Part shown: positions 29,520 to 39,576 of the stretch, piece by piece
Position numbering within the stretch: the first letter of the stretch is position 1
Layout of the letters: the number at the start of each line of letters is the position of its first letter
Assembly: GCA_938743325.2 (NCBI GenBank)
Contig: OW568889.1
Span: 1 to 64,000, forward strand
Length of the DNA stretch: 64,000 nucleotides
Reading direction: 5' to 3'
From: Pycnococcus provasolii
Lineage: Eukaryota > Chlorophyta > Pseudoscourfieldiophyceae > Pseudoscourfieldiales > Pycnococcaceae
The notes under the pieces: model-generated
Databases searched by the model: none
The model's input: the letters and a program-made list of their open reading frames with translations, nothing else
What the model was told of the DNA's origin: nothing
Made by a program: the position numbers and the translations under genes

Positions 29520-32500
29520 TCATTTTACGGCTGTGGCAGGACGCGCCATTTCGCCGTCCGCTGTCGACCGAACGTCGTCATTGTAAAGGGCAATCGCGTT
29601 GTCGTCGTCGTCGTCGTCGTCGCTCAGTCCTTGCGATTCGCCGGCGTTGCCGCCGGTAAAGAGGACAAATTCTTGACAACCCTCTGCAGAGGCCATCTTT
29701 GCCGTTCCGACAAAGACAACCGCGTCGTCGAACAAAACGCGGAATTCGCGAACGCCTCGGCGTTTTGTCTTCACATAATTCCATATGCGAAGCGACGAGA
29801 AGCGGTGTCCGCTGGAAATGCACGGAAGCAGGAGACAAACTTCCGCCTTGCCAGTCCACGGCGCAAGCCAGCTGCTCGCAACGTGATCTTCGCTGTGCAC
29901 GCCGTCCGCAAGCTTGTTCGGCGTTCGCGGGTCGTCGTCGCTGACGCTCCAGGGTGACGCAAATACGTTCGCGGGATCGAGAGGAAAGCCTTCGCATGTC
30001 GTCGCATCAACGAGTTCCACACCCTGCAGGCCGACGTAGTGCTTGTCTCCCCAAGTGCGCGAAACGACAATCTTCACGTGGCTGAACGCTACGGGTGCAA
30101 GGTCTGCCACACCGCCGACGCCACGAGAAGGCGAGGGTTGCATAGCATCACTCGAGAGAGATGTGAGGACGAGCTCCTGTGCAAACTCGCTGACCCACGG
30201 GACGCCAGGCGCCTTGCGCACCCAAACACCATCCACGGGGCCAAGGGCAACCCCGTCCAGCAACACGCGTACGAGGCGCACGCCACGAGAAGCGTCGTCC
30301 ACGTTCTTGTTGTAGTTGTGCACACAGAGAGTGTGAACCTCTCTCTTCGGATCGAGAGTCAGTTCCACGAACGTTCCTCCGCCAGGCTCGAATGGCGCAA
30401 GCCACGTGTGCGAGACGTCGTCGAGAACGCCGTCCAGAAGCTTATCAGCCGTGCGCGGATCTGCGGAAGTACCATCCATCGCCTCGAAGTGCGGCGCACC
30501 AGTCGCGCTGAGAATTTCTACGGGCGTGCCACTCGCGTCAAGCAGCGATATGTTCGACAAACCAGCGTAGTTGGCATCACCCCACGTCGCAAGCACCTCC
30601 AAACGAAGCAGCCGGCCTTTGACGCCAGCTGCGCTCGACGTCCCTGAGGTGAATGCCGCCGCAGACGACGACGACACCGGAGCTGTGGCACCTAGAGCTG
30701 CACCGCCGATGGCTGTGAAAGGGCGGTTCATGCTGGCACGAAGGCTTGCCGCTTTCGTAGATTCGTCCTCCTTCTCCGCGGTCGGTGGACGCTGCAGTCG
30801 CTCGATATCCTGGGTTATTATTAAGGTGGGTGGTTAATAGGGTTAATAGAGTTTTCAGGGCTATTGGGTTGTTATGGTTGTTGGATTACCTCAGCCGTGA
30901 TGGCGTCATCGCCCAAGAGCGAATCGTCAGTCGCCGCGATTGCCTCCAGGCAAGCTTCGCTCTCCGTGAATAGAATGCACTCCGCTGCTTGGTAGCATCC
31001 CACGGCGGATCCAGGTGCGCGCCCCAACTCACCCTGGAAGATTGGCAGGCCGTCCAGAAGCACCGAGCAGTGGCGTACGCCGCGGTGGCTGTGTATGCGA
31101 CTGATTGTTTAAGATGATCGTCGTGTTAGTCAGGGTAAGTCAAGTTGTTTCAGCAAGAGAACAAGGCAAGAAGAAAGTTATACCTCTTATTGTAATTCCA
31201 GATGCGCAGCATGCCAAGCGCTACTGCGGGAGATGTTTCAGGAGCTAGCGCGAAGCTCACGACGTGCTCCTGCTGGCGTGTGAATGGCGCGAGCCACATG
31301 TGCACGTCGTCGGACGTGGCGAACACGCCGTCGATGAGCTTATCTGGGGTTCGAGGGTCGTCTTCTAGTCCCGGAAGTTCACTCACGGACGATGGACTTG
31401 CGCCGAGAAGCTGCAGCGGGATTTCAGCGCCCGATCGGTCGAATGCCTGCACGCCAGCGAGCCCAATGTAGTGGCGATCGCCCCATGTTGTGTGGAGCAG
31501 GAGGTCGAGCACGTGACCAGCTGGCTCAAGTGGAATAATGAAGTCCGCCGTAGGCTGCTGTCCCTCTGCGTTGCCGGCAGAAAGCTCCGGCGTTGTGGCC
31601 GACGCCATGAGCACACCCGAGCTATTTGGCTGCTCGTTGAATGCATCGAGAGCGTCAGGCAAATCGAGGGGAAGCTCGGCGCCCACACTTGCCAGGAGGT
31701 TGTCCTCGTCGTGCAAGGAACCGCGCAGCATTGGCGCGAGATCATCCGAATCTTTGGAAGTACCGACACCCCGCTGAAGACGGCCCGCCTGCGTGCGGCT
31801 GAAGAATGCCAGACTATCCCAACTCGCCTCGAGATGGCTGTTGCCACGCTGGCGGCGGCGAGGATGTGGTGCCGGCTCCTCGCTCGCTATTGGTGCTGCC
31901 GACGCATCTTTTTCTTCGTCTTCGTCGCTGGTTGCAGCGCGCCGCGGCCCTGCGGGCGTTCCCGCACGCCGTCCCGCGGACGGCATTCGGGAAGCAGAGG
32001 CACGAAGTGTCGACGTGTCCTCCGCTCCCGTCGCTTCCTGCTCCTCGCTTTTTGCGTCAGCAAACCAAAGCGGGCGGGCGGCAGCACCGTCACTGTCCGC
32101 AATCTTCGTAGATTTTTTCTTCAGCGCGGAGGCTGGACTGGCATTCACCGCCGCCGTCGTCGATGCCTTGGCGCCCTCGTCCATCCTATCCGTCTGCACA
32201 GCGGTTTCGCAAGTTTCGGGAGTAAGTGGTGCCTGCGGCGGGCTGGTGCTTGCTGGCAACGCGGCACCTTGTATGTCGTCAGTCTGCGCCGCCGATGACT
32301 TTGTCGGCACTTCCGCCTGAAAGCACTTGTCCACTCCAGCAGAGGATGTTGCCTCCCTTGCCGCCCTTGCCTCGGCAGCAGCCTCGTCGCCGAGCGAAAT
32401 GCCCTGCTCAAGGGCCTCAAGTGCGCGCATGAGCTCAGCACGACGCGCGCCATCGAGCGCACGCATGCGACGCATGATCGCAATGTCGTCGGCTGCCGGT

Positions 32501-33453
32501 GCTGCACTCGCGGGAGTCGCGCTGGGAATCTCGTTCGCGGTCGTCGCCGGCTGTATCCGGTGGCGTGCACTCGCCTGCCTGTTCTCCTCCTTGAGCGCCT
32601 GGACAACGCGGCTGATCTCCGCAACGTCCTTCGCGGCACTTTTCAGGCTTGCGTTCTCAGCCTTGACGCGTGTCGCGCTGAGTGGCCGAGACGACATGCG
32701 CGCAGGCGGCGCCTCGTCCTCCAGCGGCGCCGTCGCTTCCTCCTCAAGCTCGTCGACGGGATCTTCCACCACCTCATCGTCGTCGACGTCGTCTTGATGT
32801 TGAAAGTACACACTTCTTTGCTGCTGCTGCTGCTGCTTGTACGGGCTGTCTAGTTCGACGTTGTCCAGTTCGTCCTCCTCCTCGATGTCGTCGAACGTCT
32901 CGTCGCCGTAGTCGACGAAGCCTTCGTCCGGCGCCTCCGCTGCAACGGCGGCATGCTGTGCCAAGCTGTCTACATTGGGTGGCGTAACAATCTCCGCCTG
33001 CTCCCGACGATAGGTTGACAGTGCGGCTGCGTACCCCGCCGCGGCCGACGCGTCCACCCAGTTTCTGCGCGGTGGTCTGATGCCCGCCGCTGCGGCGGCC
33101 GCCGCGGCGGTCGCCTCCCTCTTCCTTCGTTCGTCGACGCTCTGCGCGTTCGCGCCGTTCAGCGCGGTCATGAATCCCTCTTCCCTTCTCCGCAGCTCCT
33201 CCAAGTGCGACTCCTGAGGCTGAGGCTGGGAGGTTGCCAGGGCGTTGGAGGCCGCCAGGGCGTTGGAGGCCACACCCACAGCAGGGGGCCCGGCACACCA
33301 CTGCTTTCTCTGAGGCGGCTGAGAAAGCAGCGGGGAAGAATTGCTGCAAGGAGGAGCATCAAGTCCACATGTCCCATCATCCAGCCCCATCATCCTGGAG
33401 CTGCTGTTCTCTTCCAAGGACTCTTCACCGTACGGCCCAGGCGGGGACGGCAT
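29520..33453 (-). CDS. KATNIP: Katanin-interacting protein, KATNIP (three exons)
   Basis: Exons on the minus strand: 33453-31184, 31100-30890 and 30809-29520, giving about 1,256 residues. The first ~640 residues are acidic, Ser/Ala-rich and disordered. The rest holds repeated KATNIP (DUF4457) modules: LLLHTTWGDRHYIGLAG with a DDPRTPDKLIDGVF stretch, then RIWNYNK|SRIHSHRGVR across intron 1, LEVLATWGDANYAGLSN, and VVSRTWGDKHYVGLQG ending LRIWNYVKTKRRGVRE. Both splices keep frame and restore domain sequence. KATNIP binds katanin and sits at basal bodies; loss causes Joubert syndrome in humans. I chose ATG 33453; the open frame extends to 33591. Human KATNIP is about 1,600 residues, so this is shorter. 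Confidence 0.9.
30810..30889 (-). other. KATNIP intron 2
   Basis: An 80-bp phase-0 intron: donor GAG|GTAATC at 30889, acceptor CCCAG|GAT ending at 30810. CTATTAACC words may serve as branch sites. Confidence 0.88.
31101..31183 (-). other. KATNIP intron 1
   Basis: An 83-bp phase-2 intron: donor AAGAG|GTATAA at 31183, branch-like TGACTAAC at 31132-31125, acceptor AATCAG at 31101. Splicing creates NKSRIHSHRGVR, conserved in KATNIP. Confidence 0.92.
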
Positions 33454-34719
33454 GACGGAACAGAAGAAGAATCTTGATTTTTTTTCGAAATGAACTTTCA
33501 AAAACGAAGAGAAGAGGGCAGGAGGGGGAAAGACAAGCAGGCCGCGGAAAGGAGCTCCCTCCCGGGATCCCCTCCCCCTCCCCGGGAACAACGGCGAAGC
33601 AGCTCATAAGTGGCCGCGGGATAGTCCCACGGGCTTTCCGCTTCTCGGGCGGGCCCCCTTTCCCCTGCTTGGGGATACCTCCTTGCTCATTTCCCCTTGA
33701 TGGGAAGAGGCCCGCCTCAACTTCGTTGCGGATTGTGTGGGAGCAGTGAGTGGCGCGCCGGGCTGAATTGGATGCAAGGACGTCGTGCACACGTGCGCTA
33801 GCTGGAGTGGCTGAATCGGCGGCGGCGGGCGGCTCATCTGGTGGCGGCTCGGCGGCGGCGCAAGCTGCAATCACGCCGGCGTACATCACCAAGTACGTCG
33901 AGCTATGCTCAGCAACGCCTAACCATTGGGCCGACCTAAACAGTTCCAAGGCGTACGTGAAACATGCGACCGCACCATATCCCGGGGATAATTCCGAAAC
34001 GAGCGGACCCGAACAAGTTATCTCTCGCCACCACCTCCGGGAACTTGCAGAACAAAGCTTGCATGATCTTGCGGCCCCACGAGGCCCCACGAGGCCTCTG
34101 ACCCCTCCATGGGTCAGGGGGGATGCGCCGCCTCCGGTTGGAGAGTGGTCACGCGGTCGAAATTCCCGACATCGTCAAGTGGTGGTTTGCTGAGAAACGA
34201 GACAAGATCGTCACGCGATTTAATGTGCGATACGCAATGAAGATGATTAGGGGTTTGACGAAAATTGATATCTCAGCGAGTACGTGTCCGTTTTGGACGA
34301 GGTAAAGGCGTAGCGGTCTAGCCTAGGACCCTAGTGACCTGCCAATACCACTTGGACGACAGGAGAACACGTCCCACGCACAGGGTACACGTTTGGACAC
34401 AACCCTGTGCTACATCCCTTACGACTTTCGGTGGGGCGGACACCCATGTTTAGTTTTACCGCCTCTTTGGTTCTGTCCCCGACCTTAGTTTGACCATGAT
34501 CCACATCGGGGCCTTAAGTCGAAAATGCCGCGTGCCGCGTGCGAGTGGTACTGTATACAATGCGCGTGCCTCTTTTCCCTCCGTGCGTCGTGCGATCGAT
34601 CTCCGGGCGGCACTTGGCAAACCGCTTCCGGGGCGCCCACGTGCGTCGTCTTCCACGGGTTCGCGCGAACCAAGGTCACCAAACGCAACCCCGGGGTGAT
34701 GCTGATGCCCTCCGCCACC
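33454..34719. other. Divergent intergenic region, 1.27 kb
   Basis: Lies between KATNIP (minus) and the ATAD3 fusion (plus). Near KATNIP it is purine-rich on the plus strand. A 147-codon plus frame (33750-34193) and a 60-codon frame (34123-34305) that overlap in different frames show no known domain; the latter has PDIVKWWFAEKRDKIVTRFN, which looks protein-like but could be an exon or relic. A small inverted repeat TGACCC-CTCCAT-GGGTCA lies near 34099. Confidence 0.45.
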
Positions 34720-37700
34720 ATGAACCGCCACACGCGGCGTCGGCGCTCCCGGCCGCCAGCACGCGTGCAAGGACACTGCGCCATGATCGCAGGCCTGCTC
34801 GTCGTCGCGTGCATAGCGGCTTCTATTTGCACACGCACAGCAGAAGCCGCGTGGGTGTACCACCGCCACGTCGTGCAAGATGCCTTAGCCGCGCGGATCG
34901 AAGTTACCAAGCACGTCGACAAGTCGAACAAGGGAACGCCGCCCGCGCAGCCGCCCGGATTCGACAACCACTTCGCCATTGGCCAGAGATGTCCTGCGAG
35001 AGGGGAGAGAGGAGGGCCGTACCGCGCTCTTGTCAAGTTCCCGATGGACACGCTAGCCAGCCTAGACATCGCAAGGGCGGAGGTCAAGATAAGCCTGCGT
35101 CGATACGACTTCAAAAGCGAGACCGTTGAGGTGCACCGACTCGCGGGAGACTTTGACAAAGCCGTCACACCGTCGAACGCGCCTGCGCGAACTAGCGACG
35201 TTGCACTAGCAACGGCTGACGTGTCCGACTCGGTGCGCGGCGTTTGGACGGATGTGGCGCTGAACGTCACGCAGAACCTCATACACGACGTCGAGAGGGG
35301 ATACGGCACGTTTGCCGTATCGCTCAGTGGCGACGAGGCGAACTGCTTCACGCGCTCCGCACTCAAGTCGAGCGCAAGCCTCGTGATCACGCACCAAACG
35401 GACGGCACGCCACCCGAGGCGACTCTCGTCGGAGCGCCGAGAAGTCCGAGCGCGTCAGCCGAGTCGCGGCTCAGCTTCGTCGGTAGCGACGAGGAGAGCG
35501 GAGTGAGCCACTTCGAGTGCTCGCTCGACGGAGGCGACTACCTGCCGTGCACATCGCCTTGGCGGTACCTCAGCCTGCTCGACGGCACGCACACGTTTGA
35601 CGTGCGCGCCGTCGACCGCGCGGGTAATGTGGGAACTCCCTCGTCGGCGACGCCATGGATCGTTGACACATCCGCGCCCGTCGTGTCCATCTACAGCGCG
35701 CCAGTGGCGAAGAGCGACTCCGCATCTGCCACATTCGCATTCACGTTCAGTGACCCCAAGCCCGTCGACGGCGACGGCGCGACGAGCGGCGTCGCCTCCG
35801 TGCGCTGTCAGCTTGACGGAGGAGCTCTCAGCCGATGCAGCTCGCCGATGACGTACACGGGACTCACGGAAGGAGAGCACACGTTCGTCGTGCACGTCAC
35901 GGACGAGGCGAACAACACGGGAGTGTCGAACGTGCACACGTGGACGGTGGACCTACCACCCGCCGTTGCGCTCGAGCTCGTCGTGGATGCCGAAGAGGCT
36001 CCTTCTCGGGGTGTTGGTCGCAATGCCGCCGCCGCTCGCGCCGCAAAGCGTCGCGGTGCGGGGCGAGATGCGCGCATCGTGCGCGGCGAATTTACGGTTC
36101 GCGTTGCGTGGAGCGAACTTGTGCATAATTTTGACGAAGCGGACATTCAGTTGACTGGTGCCGCGGCGGAGATTTTGTCGCTGTCGGTTGACAAGAAGTC
36201 GCCGGGACCTGGAACGGTGTACGTGCTTGCCATGAAGCCGCGCTCCTCGGGAACTCTCACCATCTCGGTTCCGGCTGATTCTGCAAAAGACGCGAATGGA
36301 CGCGCGAATCCTCTCCCGGCTCCATCGCTCACGGTGACGTGCGACCTCGACGCACCCGTCGCACGCATCGTGGGCGAGCCAGCAATTGCCGACGGCGCAT
36401 TCATTGCAACCTTTGCATGGAATGAGGCGGTGTTCGGATTCGATCCCACGAACGAGGCACTCTTCGCGGGATTGCCCGTGACAGTTGAGGAAGTGATGAA
36501 AGGCGGCAACCAAGCTGCACCGTCTGCAACTAGCTTTTCCGTTCGAATCGTGCCAAAGAGTGTTGGAACGCTCAAAATACTCGTTCCCAAGGACGTGGCG
36601 CAGGACGCCGCGGGCAACGCCAACGCCGCCATGGATAGTGCCGCGTCCATTCAAGTTGTGAGCGGAACATCCTTCGTCTTGTCGCGAGAAGAGAAAGGAC
36701 AAACTCGCGTGCGTCGATTCACCGCAGGCCTTGACGCGCTCGGTGACGCGCAGATACTCCCAATAGATCTCGCGGATGATGCTGTCTCAACTGCCACTGT
36801 AGATCGGACCGGGCGCCTTCTGATCGCGGATGCGGCAACTTCCTCTATTCAATTCTTCGGTGCCGATCTGAGTCCTGATGCCACCCTGCATGGTTTTGCG
36901 AACGTAAGCTCCATCGCTATTGACGAAGCGTCGGGAGTCATCTTCGTTGCACATGGCGCGGGTGACGCGCACGGAATTTGGGCTGTGAATGCGACAACGG
37001 GCGAGACGTTGAATCGTATCGATGTCGACGTCACGAGTGCGAGCGGCGACGACAACGATGAAGACACGAAGCCTGTGAGACTGCATCACGCGGACGCGCT
37101 TGCATTTGACGGATCGTCCACGCTCTATGCCCTCGATGCCAAGCAGGGCGTGGCCCTTGCCTTTCTTACGCAAGCAGGTGCTGCGGCTGGAGCGAGCAGG
37201 TTTACAAATGAATCGTCTTTTGCACACCCGAAGGCAATTGAGGTGGATGGCGATGGGTATGTATACGTTGCGGATGGTGACAGGGTGCACATATTCGCAA
37301 GGAATGGAAAGTTAGCTGGCATGATTGACGCGTCGGCGCTCCCCAAGGGTGGCACGTTCCGCCCCGTAAGCCTTGCGATGGATCGTCATGCTAGACTTCT
37401 TGTGGGTAATAACGCGAAAGCGTCGGCGCTTGTATTCCGCAAGCTGCACCCACGTGCACCTGCCACCACGTATGTTTCAGCTCTTCCCAGCGGATCGGGT
37501 AATGTGGCGGCCGTGTCTGTGTACCGTGAGCGCGCTCCGCCCGACGCATCTTTGAAACTGATGCAGGACGCGGCGACGACGAGTATGGAGGTGTCGTCGT
37601 CGGGCGACGGAAGCCTGCCCACCGTGCATGGAGAATTTGACGTGGCTGTCACGTGGTCAAAGCCGGTGACAAATTTTTCCGCGAATGCCCTAAAAATTGG

Positions 37701-39576
37701 CGGTGCCGGTGGATCTGTGCTTGAGGTTGTGCCGCTCGACACTCCGGCGATGGACAATGACGGCGACGGCGAATTCGACGAGGACGATGGGGTTCCTCGC
37801 AAGAGCTTTCGTGTTCGCGTCGCCCCAGCTGGCGTCGGCGTTGTCATCGTGGGAGTTCACCCTTCGACTGTCGTGGACGTGGATGGCAACACGAATGTAG
37901 AGTCGTCGTCTTCGTCGTCGTCATCTCTCGTATCCGCATCGGCGTCGTCGGAGGCGGCAACCTCCGAGCTTCGCACCGTGTTCTACGGTGGCGAGTGCTC
38001 AGTGACACTCGGTTGCCAGTGGCAGCTGACTGAGTACGAGCACGAGCTTGCAGCGCGGCGCGTATCTCTCGAAGTGGACAGCCGCATTCGCCTTGAGAAG
38101 GAGAAGCTTGCGATTCAGCATGCCGCAGATGCGCGTCGCGACGCTCAGAGACACGCGGCGGAGGAAAAACTTGAGGCAATGAGGCACGAGGCGGCGCTTG
38201 CCAAGGCGCAGATTGAACGCGAGACACTTGCGGAGAAGGCGCGCCTGGAGGAGGAGGCTCGTGTGAGAGAGGCGAAGGCGACGCAGAGCCTCGAGCTTGA
38301 GAAAATTGTGGCGCGCGGCGCGGCGGCACGCGACACGGCGATTGCCGCGGTGGGGCACACGCTTTCCATGCTAGGCGAAGGTGCGAATGCTCTTCTCGGC
38401 GATCCTACGAAGCTGCGCAATGCTGCGATTCTGCTAGCTTGCATCTTTTTCGGCTACTTTGCTGCACGCGAGATCGCCTCGGCACTGGCTGAGGTGATGC
38501 GTCGCGTCCTGGGGCAGCCGCGTCTCGTTCGCGCTTCGAGTCGCTTTCACCTGTCATCGCTGCTTCCCGGTTTCGTCCGCCGTATTTTTGCGTCGAGCAA
38601 GCCACCACCTGCGGTGATCAGTGGCGATGAGCCCGATATCGTGCTGAGTGACTCGGTGGCTGCGAAAGTGAATGCGATCGGATACGCCGTGCACGCCTGC
38701 CACACGCGTGGCACGGCGCTCCGCAACGTGCTCTTTTTCGGAGCACCGGGCACCGGCAAGACGCTCGTCGCCGAGCGCCTTGCTCGCACCGCAGGTCTCG
38801 ACTACGCCCTGATGAGCGGCGGCGACGTCGCGCCGCTTGGTGAGAAGGCGGTCACTGAGCTGCACCGCGTGTTCGACTGGGCAGCACGAAGCCCTCGTGG
38901 CGTTCTGATCTTCGTCGACGAAGCGGACGCCTTCTTGAAGCGACGTGTTGACGAGGCACACGCGGCACCTGGAGGTGATGCGAGCCATAGCGGCAGCCGC
39001 GCGGCGGTGAACGCATTTTTGGCCCGCACGAGTTCCCAGAGCACTCGCGTGATGCTTGTCCTGGCTACGAATCGCCCGCACGATCTCGACGCTGCCGTCT
39101 TGGATCGTGTGGACGCGACGATCGAGTTCCCCATGCCTGGCGCGGTGGAGAGGAGCCGTTTGCTAAGGTTGGGGCTGACGCGCGATCTCGGCACGCCGGA
39201 AACGAACGGTGATGGCAAGAGCATAAAGTGCTTCGTGCCTCGTCGGCCGAGTGGCCTGCGTTCCATCTTGGCCCGTCGACAGCCAGACATTATGGCTGTT
39301 GGCGGTTTGAATTGGGCTCATGTGGACGCCGCCGCGAGCCAGCTAGGCGGCTGGAGTGGCCGTGGCATTGCAAAGTTGTGCTCGGCGCTCGCACTTGCGG
39401 TGTTTGGGCGTCACACCGACGACGGCCGGCTGGCGGACGCGTTGACAATCTCTCCCTCTGACTTTGACATTCTCATCAAGGAGAAGTCTGAGGAGGCGAG
39501 GCATTTGAGCCTATTCGACAAGCACTCGCGCGAATCGTTTCTGTTCCCTCTCAAGAGCAATGGCAACGGGCACTAA
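34720..39576 (+). CDS. Secreted adhesin-like domains fused to an ATAD3 AAA+ ATPase
   Basis: A 1,618-residue protein in one uninterrupted frame. Order: hydrophobic signal (residues 22-40, ending TAEA|AW); a DNRLRE/CBM-like beta domain (about 100-228); two bacterial Ig-like repeats (ECSLDGGDYLPCTSPW and DGTHTFDVRAVDRAGN; 231-414); two further Big-like domains (414-647); an NHL-like propeller (650-937); a third Big-like domain (940-1057); a Ser run; then ATAD3: coiled coil (1098-1204), membrane segment (about 1229-1254) and AAA domain with Walker A GAPGTGKT (about 1342), Walker B FVDEADAF and ATNRP. ATAD3 is normally a ~600-residue mitochondrial inner-membrane ATPase for nucleoids and cholesterol handling. 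ATG 34720 has GCCACCATGA context. The location of the fusion is unclear; mRNA is needed to exclude two genes. Confidence 0.85.
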   Translation: MNRHTRRRRSRPPARVQGHCAMIAGLLVVACIAASICTRTAEAAWVYHRHVVQDALAARIEVTKHVDKSNKGTPPAQPPGFDNHFAIGQRCPARGERGGPYRALVKFPMDTLASLDIARAEVKISLRRYDFKSETVEVHRLAGDFDKAVTPSNAPARTSDVALATADVSDSVRGVWTDVALNVTQNLIHDVERGYGTFAVSLSGDEANCFTRSALKSSASLVITHQTDGTPPEATLVGAPRSPSASAESRLSFVGSDEESGVSHFECSLDGGDYLPCTSPWRYLSLLDGTHTFDVRAVDRAGNVGTPSSATPWIVDTSAPVVSIYSAPVAKSDSASATFAFTFSDPKPVDGDGATSGVASVRCQLDGGALSRCSSPMTYTGLTEGEHTFVVHVTDEANNTGVSNVHTWTVDLPPAVALELVVDAEEAPSRGVGRNAAAARAAKRRGAGRDARIVRGEFTVRVAWSELVHNFDEADIQLTGAAAEILSLSVDKKSPGPGTVYVLAMKPRSSGTLTISVPADSAKDANGRANPLPAPSLTVTCDLDAPVARIVGEPAIADGAFIATFAWNEAVFGFDPTNEALFAGLPVTVEEVMKGGNQAAPSATSFSVRIVPKSVGTLKILVPKDVAQDAAGNANAAMDSAASIQVVSGTSFVLSREEKGQTRVRRFTAGLDALGDAQILPIDLADDAVSTATVDRTGRLLIADAATSSIQFFGADLSPDATLHGFANVSSIAIDEASGVIFVAHGAGDAHGIWAVNATTGETLNRIDVDVTSASGDDNDEDTKPVRLHHADALAFDGSSTLYALDAKQGVALAFLTQAGAAAGASRFTNESSFAHPKAIEVDGDGYVYVADGDRVHIFARNGKLAGMIDASALPKGGTFRPVSLAMDRHARLLVGNNAKASALVFRKLHPRAPATTYVSALPSGSGNVAAVSVYRERAPPDASLKLMQDAATTSMEVSSSGDGSLPTVHGEFDVAVTWSKPVTNFSANALKIGGAGGSVLEVVPLDTPAMDNDGDGEFDEDDGVPRKSFRVRVAPAGVGVVIVGVHPSTVVDVDGNTNVESSSSSSSSLVSASASSEAATSELRTVFYGGECSVTLGCQWQLTEYEHELAARRVSLEVDSRIRLEKEKLAIQHAADARRDAQRHAAEEKLEAMRHEAALAKAQIERETLAEKARLEEEARVREAKATQSLELEKIVARGAAARDTAIAAVGHTLSMLGEGANALLGDPTKLRNAAILLACIFFGYFAAREIASALAEVMRRVLGQPRLVRASSRFHLSSLLPGFVRRIFASSKPPPAVISGDEPDIVLSDSVAAKVNAIGYAVHACHTRGTALRNVLFFGAPGTGKTLVAERLARTAGLDYALMSGGDVAPLGEKAVTELHRVFDWAARSPRGVLIFVDEADAFLKRRVDEAHAAPGGDASHSGSRAAVNAFLARTSSQSTRVMLVLATNRPHDLDAAVLDRVDATIEFPMPGAVERSRLLRLGLTRDLGTPETNGDGKSIKCFVPRRPSGLRSILARRQPDIMAVGGLNWAHVDAAASQLGGWSGRGIAKLCSALALAVFGRHTDDGRLADALTISPSDFDILIKEKSEEARHLSLFDKHSRESFLFPLKSNGNGH

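What the first reader, a model, noticed from the sequence alone, without database searches (positions are those of the whole stretch)
34720..39576. ATAD3 ATPase fused to a bacterial-style secreted adhesin
One uninterrupted frame of 1,618 residues runs from a signal peptide through a DNRLRE/CBM-like domain, several bacterial Ig-like domains and an NHL-like propeller, then straight into ATAD3 with its coiled coil, membrane helix and complete AAA motifs. ATAD3 is known as a ~600-residue mitochondrial inner-membrane protein without any such extension. The Ig repeats (SLDGG...CTSP, DGTHTF) are typical of bacterial surface proteins, so the N-terminal ~1,050 residues may have been acquired by gene transfer. 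If expressed as one chain, an AAA ATPase would carry a large extracytoplasmic arm, either in the mitochondrial intermembrane space or, with a signal peptide, elsewhere.
Basis: partly seen in the sequence, partly recalled or inferred. Interest (0 to 1): 0.88.

Follow-up and report, generated by a model that had tools for sequence, protein, structure and literature searches.

The report
Cell-surface-style arm on ATAD3 ATPase
A tiny marine green alga carries, besides a normal mitochondrial-type ATAD3, a second ATAD3-type ATPase whose front end is replaced by a signal-peptide-like start and a large sticky, bacterial-looking arm, and the same fused protein turns up in other, unnamed organisms, so it is probably a real and old protein family that may have left the usual mitochondrial setting.

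Summary
Window 34720-39576 (+) is one open frame (1,618 aa from ATG 34720). It runs from a signal-peptide-like start through a DNRLRE-like domain, two Ig-like domains (Big_13), Big_12-type domains and a weakly recognised beta-propeller into ATAD3: coiled coil, membrane helix, AAA with its motifs. The genome matches Pycnococcus provasolii CCAP190/2 by contig number and sizes. The fusion is not an assembly accident: two further full-length relatives (57% and 31% identical) have the same order, and three shorter unnamed proteins carry the same seam. All six share a C-x5-C motif just before the ATAD3 coil; the other 135 ATAD3 proteins held here lack it. The seam is about as conserved as the AAA core. 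The alga also has an ordinary ATAD3 on another chromosome. The fused form lacks the first ~100 positions of ATAD3_N. All eight Cys invariant in the full-length alignment lie before the membrane helix. Best reading: a type I secretory-pathway membrane protein, arm outside, AAA in the cytosol, working as a wall/ligand tether or receptor. Compartment, expression and function are inferred. Transfer of the whole arm from bacteria is neither shown nor excluded.

The parts
34720..39576 (+). Fused gene: signal-peptide-like start + adhesin-like arm + ATAD3 (1618 aa from ATG 34720, stop included; open frame back to ATG 34525)
34720..34848 (+). Signal-peptide-like N-terminus (aa 66-108): Arg-rich n-region, hydrophobic core MIAGLLVVACIAASI, A-E-A before the conserved A-W
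   Evidence: A-A-W invariant in window, P0002 and P0004, with small residues at -3/-1 (A-E-A, G-R-A, A-T-A); hydropathy; no signal-peptide predictor run
34849..35400 (+). DNRLRE-like (CBM-like) domain, aa 109-292
   Evidence: NF033679 7e-8 in relative P0004, 32.7 bits vs cut-off 34; not listed for the window, nor among the 25 of 27 families shown for P0002; 54%/25% identity to P0002/P0004
35401..35958 (+). Two Ig-like domains (Big_13 / OmpL47-type), aa 293-478, each with an invariant C-x9-C
36070..36654 (+). Two Big_12-type Ig-like domains, aa 516-710
   Evidence: three Big_12 stretches in P0004
36655..37554 (+). Beta-propeller (NHL/SGL/ScyE-F-like), aa 711-1010
   Evidence: weak in the window, NHL at cut-off in P0002, ScyF/ScyE-type matches far below cut-off
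37555..37899 (+). Third Big_12-type domain, aa 1011-1125
   Evidence: Best Big_12 stretch in P0004 is the equivalent domain; below cut-off in P0161; profile matches in P0161 and P0014
37975..38028 (+). Fusion seam, aa 1151-1168: FYGGECSVTLGCQWQL, with C-x5-C (Cys1158, Cys1164)
   Evidence: 89%/67% identical to P0002/P0004; C-x5-C in 6 of 6 fused sequences; pattern in 6 of 141 ATAD3 proteins held
38029..38412 (+). ATAD3 coiled coil, aa 1169-1296 (ATAD3_N profile from position 102)
38413..38484 (+). ATAD3 transmembrane helix, aa 1297-1320
   Evidence: hydropathy; ATAD3_N match
38710..39174 (+). AAA domain, aa 1396-1550: GAPGTGKT (Walker A), FVDEAD (Walker B), ATNR (sensor 1), DRVD
   Evidence: motif names recalled
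39175..39576 (+). AAA lid region and C-terminus, aa 1551-1683, and stop

Best explanation
It is a single-gene, conserved paralogue of ATAD3 that has been moved out of the mitochondrion into the secretory pathway. A signal peptide brings the N-terminal ~1,050-residue arm (DNRLRE-like, Ig-like and propeller domains, disulfide-bonded) into the ER lumen and then outside or into the cell-wall space; the ATAD3 coil forms an oligomeric stalk, the single ATAD3 helix crosses the membrane, and the AAA ring sits in the cytosol. As in ordinary ATAD3, whose N-terminal region reaches across a gap to another membrane while the ATPase works on the other side, the protein would tether its membrane to something across a gap, here cell wall, another cell or a soluble ligand, with ATP-driven ring changes altering clustering or grip of the arms (or ligand binding altering the ATPase). 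Shown: one frame, domain order, conservation of the fusion and its seam at protein level, AAA motifs present, absence of the ATAD3 N-terminal segment, a separate ordinary ATAD3. Inferred: expression, compartment, disulfides, oligomerisation, ligand, mechanism.
For: Full-length fused relatives P0002 (57%, whole length) and P0004 (31%, 96%). Three more with the seam: P0014, P0161, P0162. Seam 89%/67% identical (P0002/P0004) against AAA 83%/63% and propeller 48%/21%. Seam pattern and the FDP motif of ordinary ATAD3 exclude each other: 6 and 116 of 141 proteins, 0 with both, 19 with neither. All eight Cys invariant in the full-length alignment (156, 274, 332, 342, 428, 438, 1158, 1164) precede the membrane helix (4 rows, one of them the same species). 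Sequons in six proteins: 21 before the helix (14.2 expected from shuffles), 2 after it (5.6 expected). Signal-peptide-like starts with a matching cleavage site in window, P0002 and P0004, the three species sequences that reach the N-terminus. The same kind of Ig modules precedes a membrane helix (seen by eye) and a kinase in one protein of this genome, C21. Ordinary ATAD3 retained on C22.
Against: No localisation or RNA data; for the relatives I saw predicted proteins, not their DNA. The Arg-rich n-regions of the window protein and P0004 could also be read as mitochondrial presequences; ordinary ATAD3 is mitochondrial with the coil outside the matrix (PMC10419812 passages; PMC13249166 passages), so N-out/C-in fits both compartments. 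Flank charges help little: 5 K/R in the 25 residues at and after the helix end, 1-3 in the 15 before it, but net +1 to +3 against -1 to +2, equal in P0014. The sequon excess is mild; the two on the far side are in P0004 and P0161. P0014 and P0161 have as many or more Cys after the helix as before it (4 and 4; 4 before, 5 after). No hydropathy window above 1.4 is reached anywhere in P0004, neither at its signal nor at its membrane helix. The C21 kinase frame shows no signal peptide by eye; its start was not resolved.
Confidence: 0.6

Rival explanations
1. The fused protein is still mitochondrial: an Arg-rich presequence plus hydrophobic sorting segment brings it to the inner membrane, the AAA lies in the matrix and the arm fills or crosses the intermembrane space, perhaps as a bulky spacer or contact-site tether.
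For: ATAD3 is otherwise mitochondrial with this orientation (passages); the n-region of the window protein, MNRHTRRRRSRPPARVQG, is strongly basic, and P0004 likewise.
Against: P0002 starts with a short ordinary signal-peptide-like sequence; a ~1,050-residue beta-rich arm with eight conserved Cys is unlike intermembrane-space proteins (recalled knowledge); similar Ig modules sit in a receptor-like kinase here; an ordinary ATAD3 is also present.
Confidence: 0.22
2. Plastid reading: bipartite targeting to the thylakoid, arm in the lumen, AAA in the stroma.
For: P0004 has a long Pro/Gly/Arg-rich leader before RRALRALALAGAVGAATA; the host is photosynthetic.
Against: The P0002 leader is about 30 residues as predicted; the window leader from ATG 34720 has no transit-peptide-like stretch by eye.
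Confidence: 0.08
3. Two genes or two products: the arm and ATAD3 are made from separate transcripts, or the chain is cut into a secreted adhesin and a free ATAD3.
For: No transcript data were available; the relatives are predicted proteins.
Against: The ATAD3 part alone lacks the first ~100 positions of ATAD3_N; the seam is at least as conserved as the AAA core; the window frame is continuous and five other predicted proteins run across the seam.
Confidence: 0.07
4. Assembly or gene-model artefact, or contamination.
For: None found.
Against: HiFi assembly with QV 58.2 if the match to Pycnococcus is right; the same order in proteins 57% and 31% identical.
Confidence: 0.03

Closest known systems
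ATAD3 / ATAD3A (mitochondrial AAA ATPase; PF12037 + PF00004)
   Same: Coiled coil, membrane helix and AAA with its motifs, in the same order; 42% identity to the alga's own ordinary ATAD3 over query residues 1166-1541.
   Different: First ~100 positions of ATAD3_N and the FDP motif are replaced by a signal-peptide-like start and ~1,050-residue arm; C-x5-C at the seam; a branch apart from the 11 ordinary ATAD3s in the tree, support 85/83 with P0035 inside.
Bacterial DNRLRE / Ig-like (Big_13, OmpL47-type) surface proteins
   Same: Best local identities up to 47% over 11% of the query, presumably the Ig part; a DNRLRE + Big_13 combination occurs in listed bacterial proteins such as a Gaiellaceae one (P0060).
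   Different: None of the Ig-type proteins listed matches the family's DNRLRE-like or propeller profile, and none lists an ATAD3 domain.
Ig-ectodomain receptor-like kinase of the same genome (C21, L020:1068-7562)
   Same: Six matches to the family's Ig profile before a membrane helix (by eye), then an enzyme domain.
   Different: Enzyme is a protein kinase plus RING finger; proline-rich rather than DNRLRE/propeller modules; no signal peptide seen in the frame.
P0035: Peptidase_S74 + ATAD3 (NCBI/JGI sequence), with a sub-cut-off MYRF_ICA match
   Same: Signal-peptide-like start and a non-ATAD3 N-terminal module on ATAD3; groups with the fused set, weakly (85/83).
   Different: Different arm; ATAD3_N matched from position 19; no seam pattern; very long branch.

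Membership tests
ATAD3 | AAA domain with Walker A/B, sensor 1 and Arg residues | tested here: met
   PF00004 8.5e-22; motifs conserved in alignments
ATAD3 | ATAD3_N domain (coiled coil and membrane helix) | tested here: met
   5.5e-22, but positions 102-265 of 265 only
ATAD3 | N-terminal FDP segment of ordinary ATAD3 | tested here: not met
   Motif in 116 of 141 ATAD3 proteins held, in 0 of the 6 with the seam
ATAD3 | Mitochondrial inner-membrane location | not testable with these tools
   No predictor or data; sequence features lean to the secretory pathway
Bacterial Ig-like surface protein | Big_13/Big_12 domains above cut-off | tested here: met
   36.5 vs 27 and 27.2 vs 27 bits
Bacterial Ig-like surface protein | DNRLRE domain | tested here: inconclusive
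   Seen only in P0004, 32.7 vs cut-off 34
NHL-type beta-propeller protein | NHL repeats above cut-off | tested here: inconclusive
   Window 12.5 vs 20; P0002 20.2 vs 20; P0004 12.9 vs 20
Single-origin fused ATAD3 subfamily | Same seam position and C-x5-C motif | tested here: met
   6 of 6 sequences
Single-origin fused ATAD3 subfamily | Fused ATAD3 parts form one clade | tested here: inconclusive
   Six alone 70/47; with P0035 85/83; neither starred. In the first tree, with a mis-cut fish row, the six needed 2 changes and were one group in 12% of bootstraps
Type I membrane protein of the secretory pathway | Cleavable signal peptide, one membrane helix, Cys/sequons on the N-terminal side | tested here: inconclusive
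   Sequence features mostly agree, exceptions in P0014, P0161 and P0004; no predictor or experiment

The most novel reading that the evidence does not exclude
An old eukaryotic ATAD3 paralogue family left the mitochondrion and became a cell-surface machine: a hexameric AAA ATPase in the cytosol mechanically coupled through the membrane to six extracellular adhesin/receptor arms, an energy-driven surface receptor or wall tether of which I found no description in the paper searches made.
Probability: 0.4. Interest if true: 0.93.

Novelty: new variant of a known kind. Interest (0 to 1): 0.77.

Why it matters
ATAD3 is reported essential in mouse embryos and in Plasmodium (PMC3556029 listing; PMC13249166 title and passages), and what it does is still being worked out. 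A natural version in which the gap-spanning N-terminal part is swapped for an adhesin-like arm would suggest that coil-helix-AAA is a portable tethering engine and that the N-terminal part sets the partner. If it sits at the surface, it would be an AAA ATPase with a large extracellular arm, which specialists would not expect, and it can be tested in a cultured picoalga.

Tried and rejected
Rejected: read-through of two adjacent genes (seam conserved, ATAD3 half lacks its own start segment). Rejected: assembly chimera (relatives at 57% and 31%). Rejected: recent copy of the alga's own ATAD3 given an arm: window + P0002 + own ordinary ATAD3 as one clade gives p-AU 0.0009. Not rejected: fused set grouped with green ordinary ATAD3s, apart from animals and P0035 (p-AU 0.25). 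A first tree of 19 rows had a wrongly cut fish row (Micropterus); in it the fused rows needed 2 changes (12% of bootstraps with 1). That row was dropped and the tree rebuilt with 18 rows and stricter columns.

Led nowhere: alignment search 2 was swamped by bacterial-type Ig repeats (699 hits, 120 listed; P0004, a query row, is not among those listed). GTDB genome scan with the DNRLRE-Ig1 alignment: 0 relatives among 410 stretches; insensitive, since it missed the known bacterial Ig relatives. PDB sequence search: the 60 rows shown of 272 and of 408 are AAA proteins. Rfam and tRNA scans of the window: none. Papers: of seven searches none listed a paper on an ATAD3 fused to such an arm, judged by titles and abstract starts; one search found 0 papers with all five terms. 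Read: PMC11130579 parts 1-2 of 3; PMC13249166 and PMC10419812 passages only. Most papers of subscription journals are not held.

Full report
Host. The window is G000:C29:1-64000 of a 32,333,900-base, 46-contig genome. The lengths of seven contigs seen (C9 1,001,743; C13 867,455; C17 728,549; C20 713,274; C21 693,180; C22 681,528; C29 596,599) agree with chromosomes 9, 13, 17, 20, 21, 22 and 29 in Table 2 of the Pycnococcus provasolii CCAP190/2 genome note, which lists 44 chromosomes plus MT and PLT (PMC11130579, parts 1-2 of 3 read). The host is therefore taken to be this picoplanktonic green alga (taxonomy). The genome has 51 Chloroa_b-bind matches. The identification rests on sizes, not on a named sequence match; the 18S search failed twice, and only one weak RuBisCO_large match was returned although a plastid contig would be expected among the 46, which I cannot explain.

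The gene. Pfam finds Big_13, Big_12, ATAD3_N and AAA above cut-off. NCBIfam adds the OmpL47-type Ig domain above cut-off in window, P0002 and P0004, and DNRLRE just under cut-off in P0004. The propeller is weak in the window, better in P0002. G+C at third positions varies (0.52-0.81 per 100 codons) without a step at the seam.

The fusion is real and old. The first protein search (residues 110-1683; only the 7,999 candidates sharing most words were scored) returned 43 proteins: three cover at least 96% of the query (P0001, 100% identical, taken as the same species; P0002, 57%; P0004, 31%), 18 are other ATAD3 proteins including P0014 and P0035, and 22 are others, 21 of them with Big_13. P0014 (1,091 aa) begins in a propeller-like stretch and has a Big_12-like domain, seam and ATAD3; its propeller match is weak (hhalign probability 41%, Big_12c 83%). 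The third search gave 1,794 proteins, 120 listed; the top two, P0161 and P0162, on contigs of 2.4-2.6 kb, start upstream of the seam; P0161 has a Big_12-type domain (below cut-off in Pfam). At the seam all six fused sequences have C-x5-C immediately before the ATAD3 'LxxYExxLA' stretch (FE for YE in P0014, S for A in P0004), where the three ordinary ATAD3s aligned have a coiled-coil-like sequence. Of 141 ATAD3 proteins held, 6 have the seam pattern, 116 the FDP motif of ordinary ATAD3, none both, and 19 neither (truncated models, variants of the motif, and P0035) (the window is represented there by P0001, and L002 was not in that count). Identity window-P0002 / window-P0004 by part: DNRLRE-like 54/25, Ig1 67/48, Ig2 71/40, Big_12a 57/34, Big_12b 53/32, propeller 48/21, Big_12c 45/28, seam 89/67, coil 71/30, helix 67/33, AAA 83/63 percent (aligned positions only, seam 18 residues). 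Conservation of the seam itself is the strongest argument for one chain. The names of the hosts of P0002, P0004, P0014, P0161 and P0162 are not given by their sources (ENA, JGI), and I saw their proteins, not their DNA.

Descent. In a tree of 18 ATAD3 parts (469 columns) window and P0002 pair at 100/100, five fused rows group at 95/93, all six plus P0035 at 85/83 against 11 ordinary ATAD3s, and the six alone at 70/47. Holding window, P0002 and the alga's own ordinary ATAD3 together is rejected (p-AU 0.0009). So the fused form is not a recent copy of the resident gene. Only plants, green algae and animal-type sequences represent ordinary ATAD3, P0004, P0014 and P0035 have long branches, the frame of the alga's ordinary ATAD3 stops at residue 503 (probably an intron), and the hosts of the relatives are unknown; age and single origin are therefore likely, not proven.

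Topology. A-A-W is invariant at the start of the mature arm, preceded by small residues at -3/-1 in all three species sequences that reach the N-terminus. In the full-length alignment all eight invariant Cys lie before the helix. Over six proteins the sequon bias is mild (21 before the helix with 14.2 expected, 2 after with 5.6 expected); raw Cys counts before/after are 9/3, 10/1, 12/1 and 2/0 in window, P0002, P0004 and P0162 but 4/4 in P0014 and 4/5 in P0161; flank charges lean to C-inside only weakly. Ordinary ATAD3A also keeps its coil outside and its AAA inside, in the mitochondrion (PMC10419812 and PMC13249166, passages), so topology alone does not settle the compartment. What tips the balance for me is the signal-peptide-like start of P0002, the conserved Cys in a large beta-rich arm, the ordinary ATAD3 kept on C22, and a second protein of the genome on C21 with six matches to the family's Ig profile, a membrane helix (by eye), a kinase and a RING finger, although no signal peptide was seen in that C21 frame.

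Origin of the arm. Among listed hits, best local identities to bacterial-type proteins reach 47% over 11% of the query, against 33-38% for the genome's own C21 Ig stretches; the first figure is the best of very many, so the comparison is loose. Of the 280 proteins listed by the three searches, 139 besides P0001, P0002 and P0004 match the Ig profile, while the DNRLRE-like and propeller profiles match only those three; four Ig-type proteins also match a Big_12 profile. Those 280 were gathered mainly by Ig and ATAD3 words, so this cannot exclude a bacterial donor. The GTDB scan was negative but insensitive.

Mechanism. I commit to a membrane tether or receptor: arm outside binding wall polymer, neighbour cell or ligand; coil as stalk; AAA ring in the cytosol, coupling ATP state to arm arrangement. 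The parallel with ordinary ATAD3, whose N-terminus is described as extending to the outer membrane (figure legend in PMC10419812), is the reason. Nothing here tests binding, oligomer state or ATPase activity.

Noticed in passing
G000:C29 about 200,434-200,632 (L022:5434-5632), copy of window 35490-35688: A 199-bp stretch of the Ig1 coding sequence occurs again, inverted and 100% identical, about 165 kb away beside what looks by eye like an importin/exportin gene: a very recent fragment duplication.
   Followed up: partly
G000:C21:401068-407562 (L020:1068-7562): A 2,164-aa frame with proline-rich stretches, six Ig-profile matches, a membrane helix (by eye), a protein kinase and a RING finger: a receptor-like kinase with bacterial-type Ig modules in a green alga.
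   Followed up: partly
P0035 (NCBI/JGI protein, 971 aa): ATAD3 behind a signal-peptide-like start and a Peptidase_S74 chaperone domain, with a sub-cut-off MYRF_ICA match: possibly a second, different N-terminal fusion of ATAD3.
   Followed up: partly
window 29520-33591 (-): Two frames with DUF4457 domains, the domain that I recall from the katanin-interacting protein KATNIP; perhaps one gene with an intron.
   Followed up: no
G000:C8:308973-309701 (-): Weak RuBisCO_large match (E 3.6e-20) on a nuclear-sized contig, perhaps a Rubisco-like protein; no strong rbcL match was returned.
   Followed up: no
G000:C2:548-552 kb (L021): Another frame with Big_13/Big_3_3 repeats (561 aa) downstream of a frame with a hydrophobic segment (by eye).
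   Followed up: no
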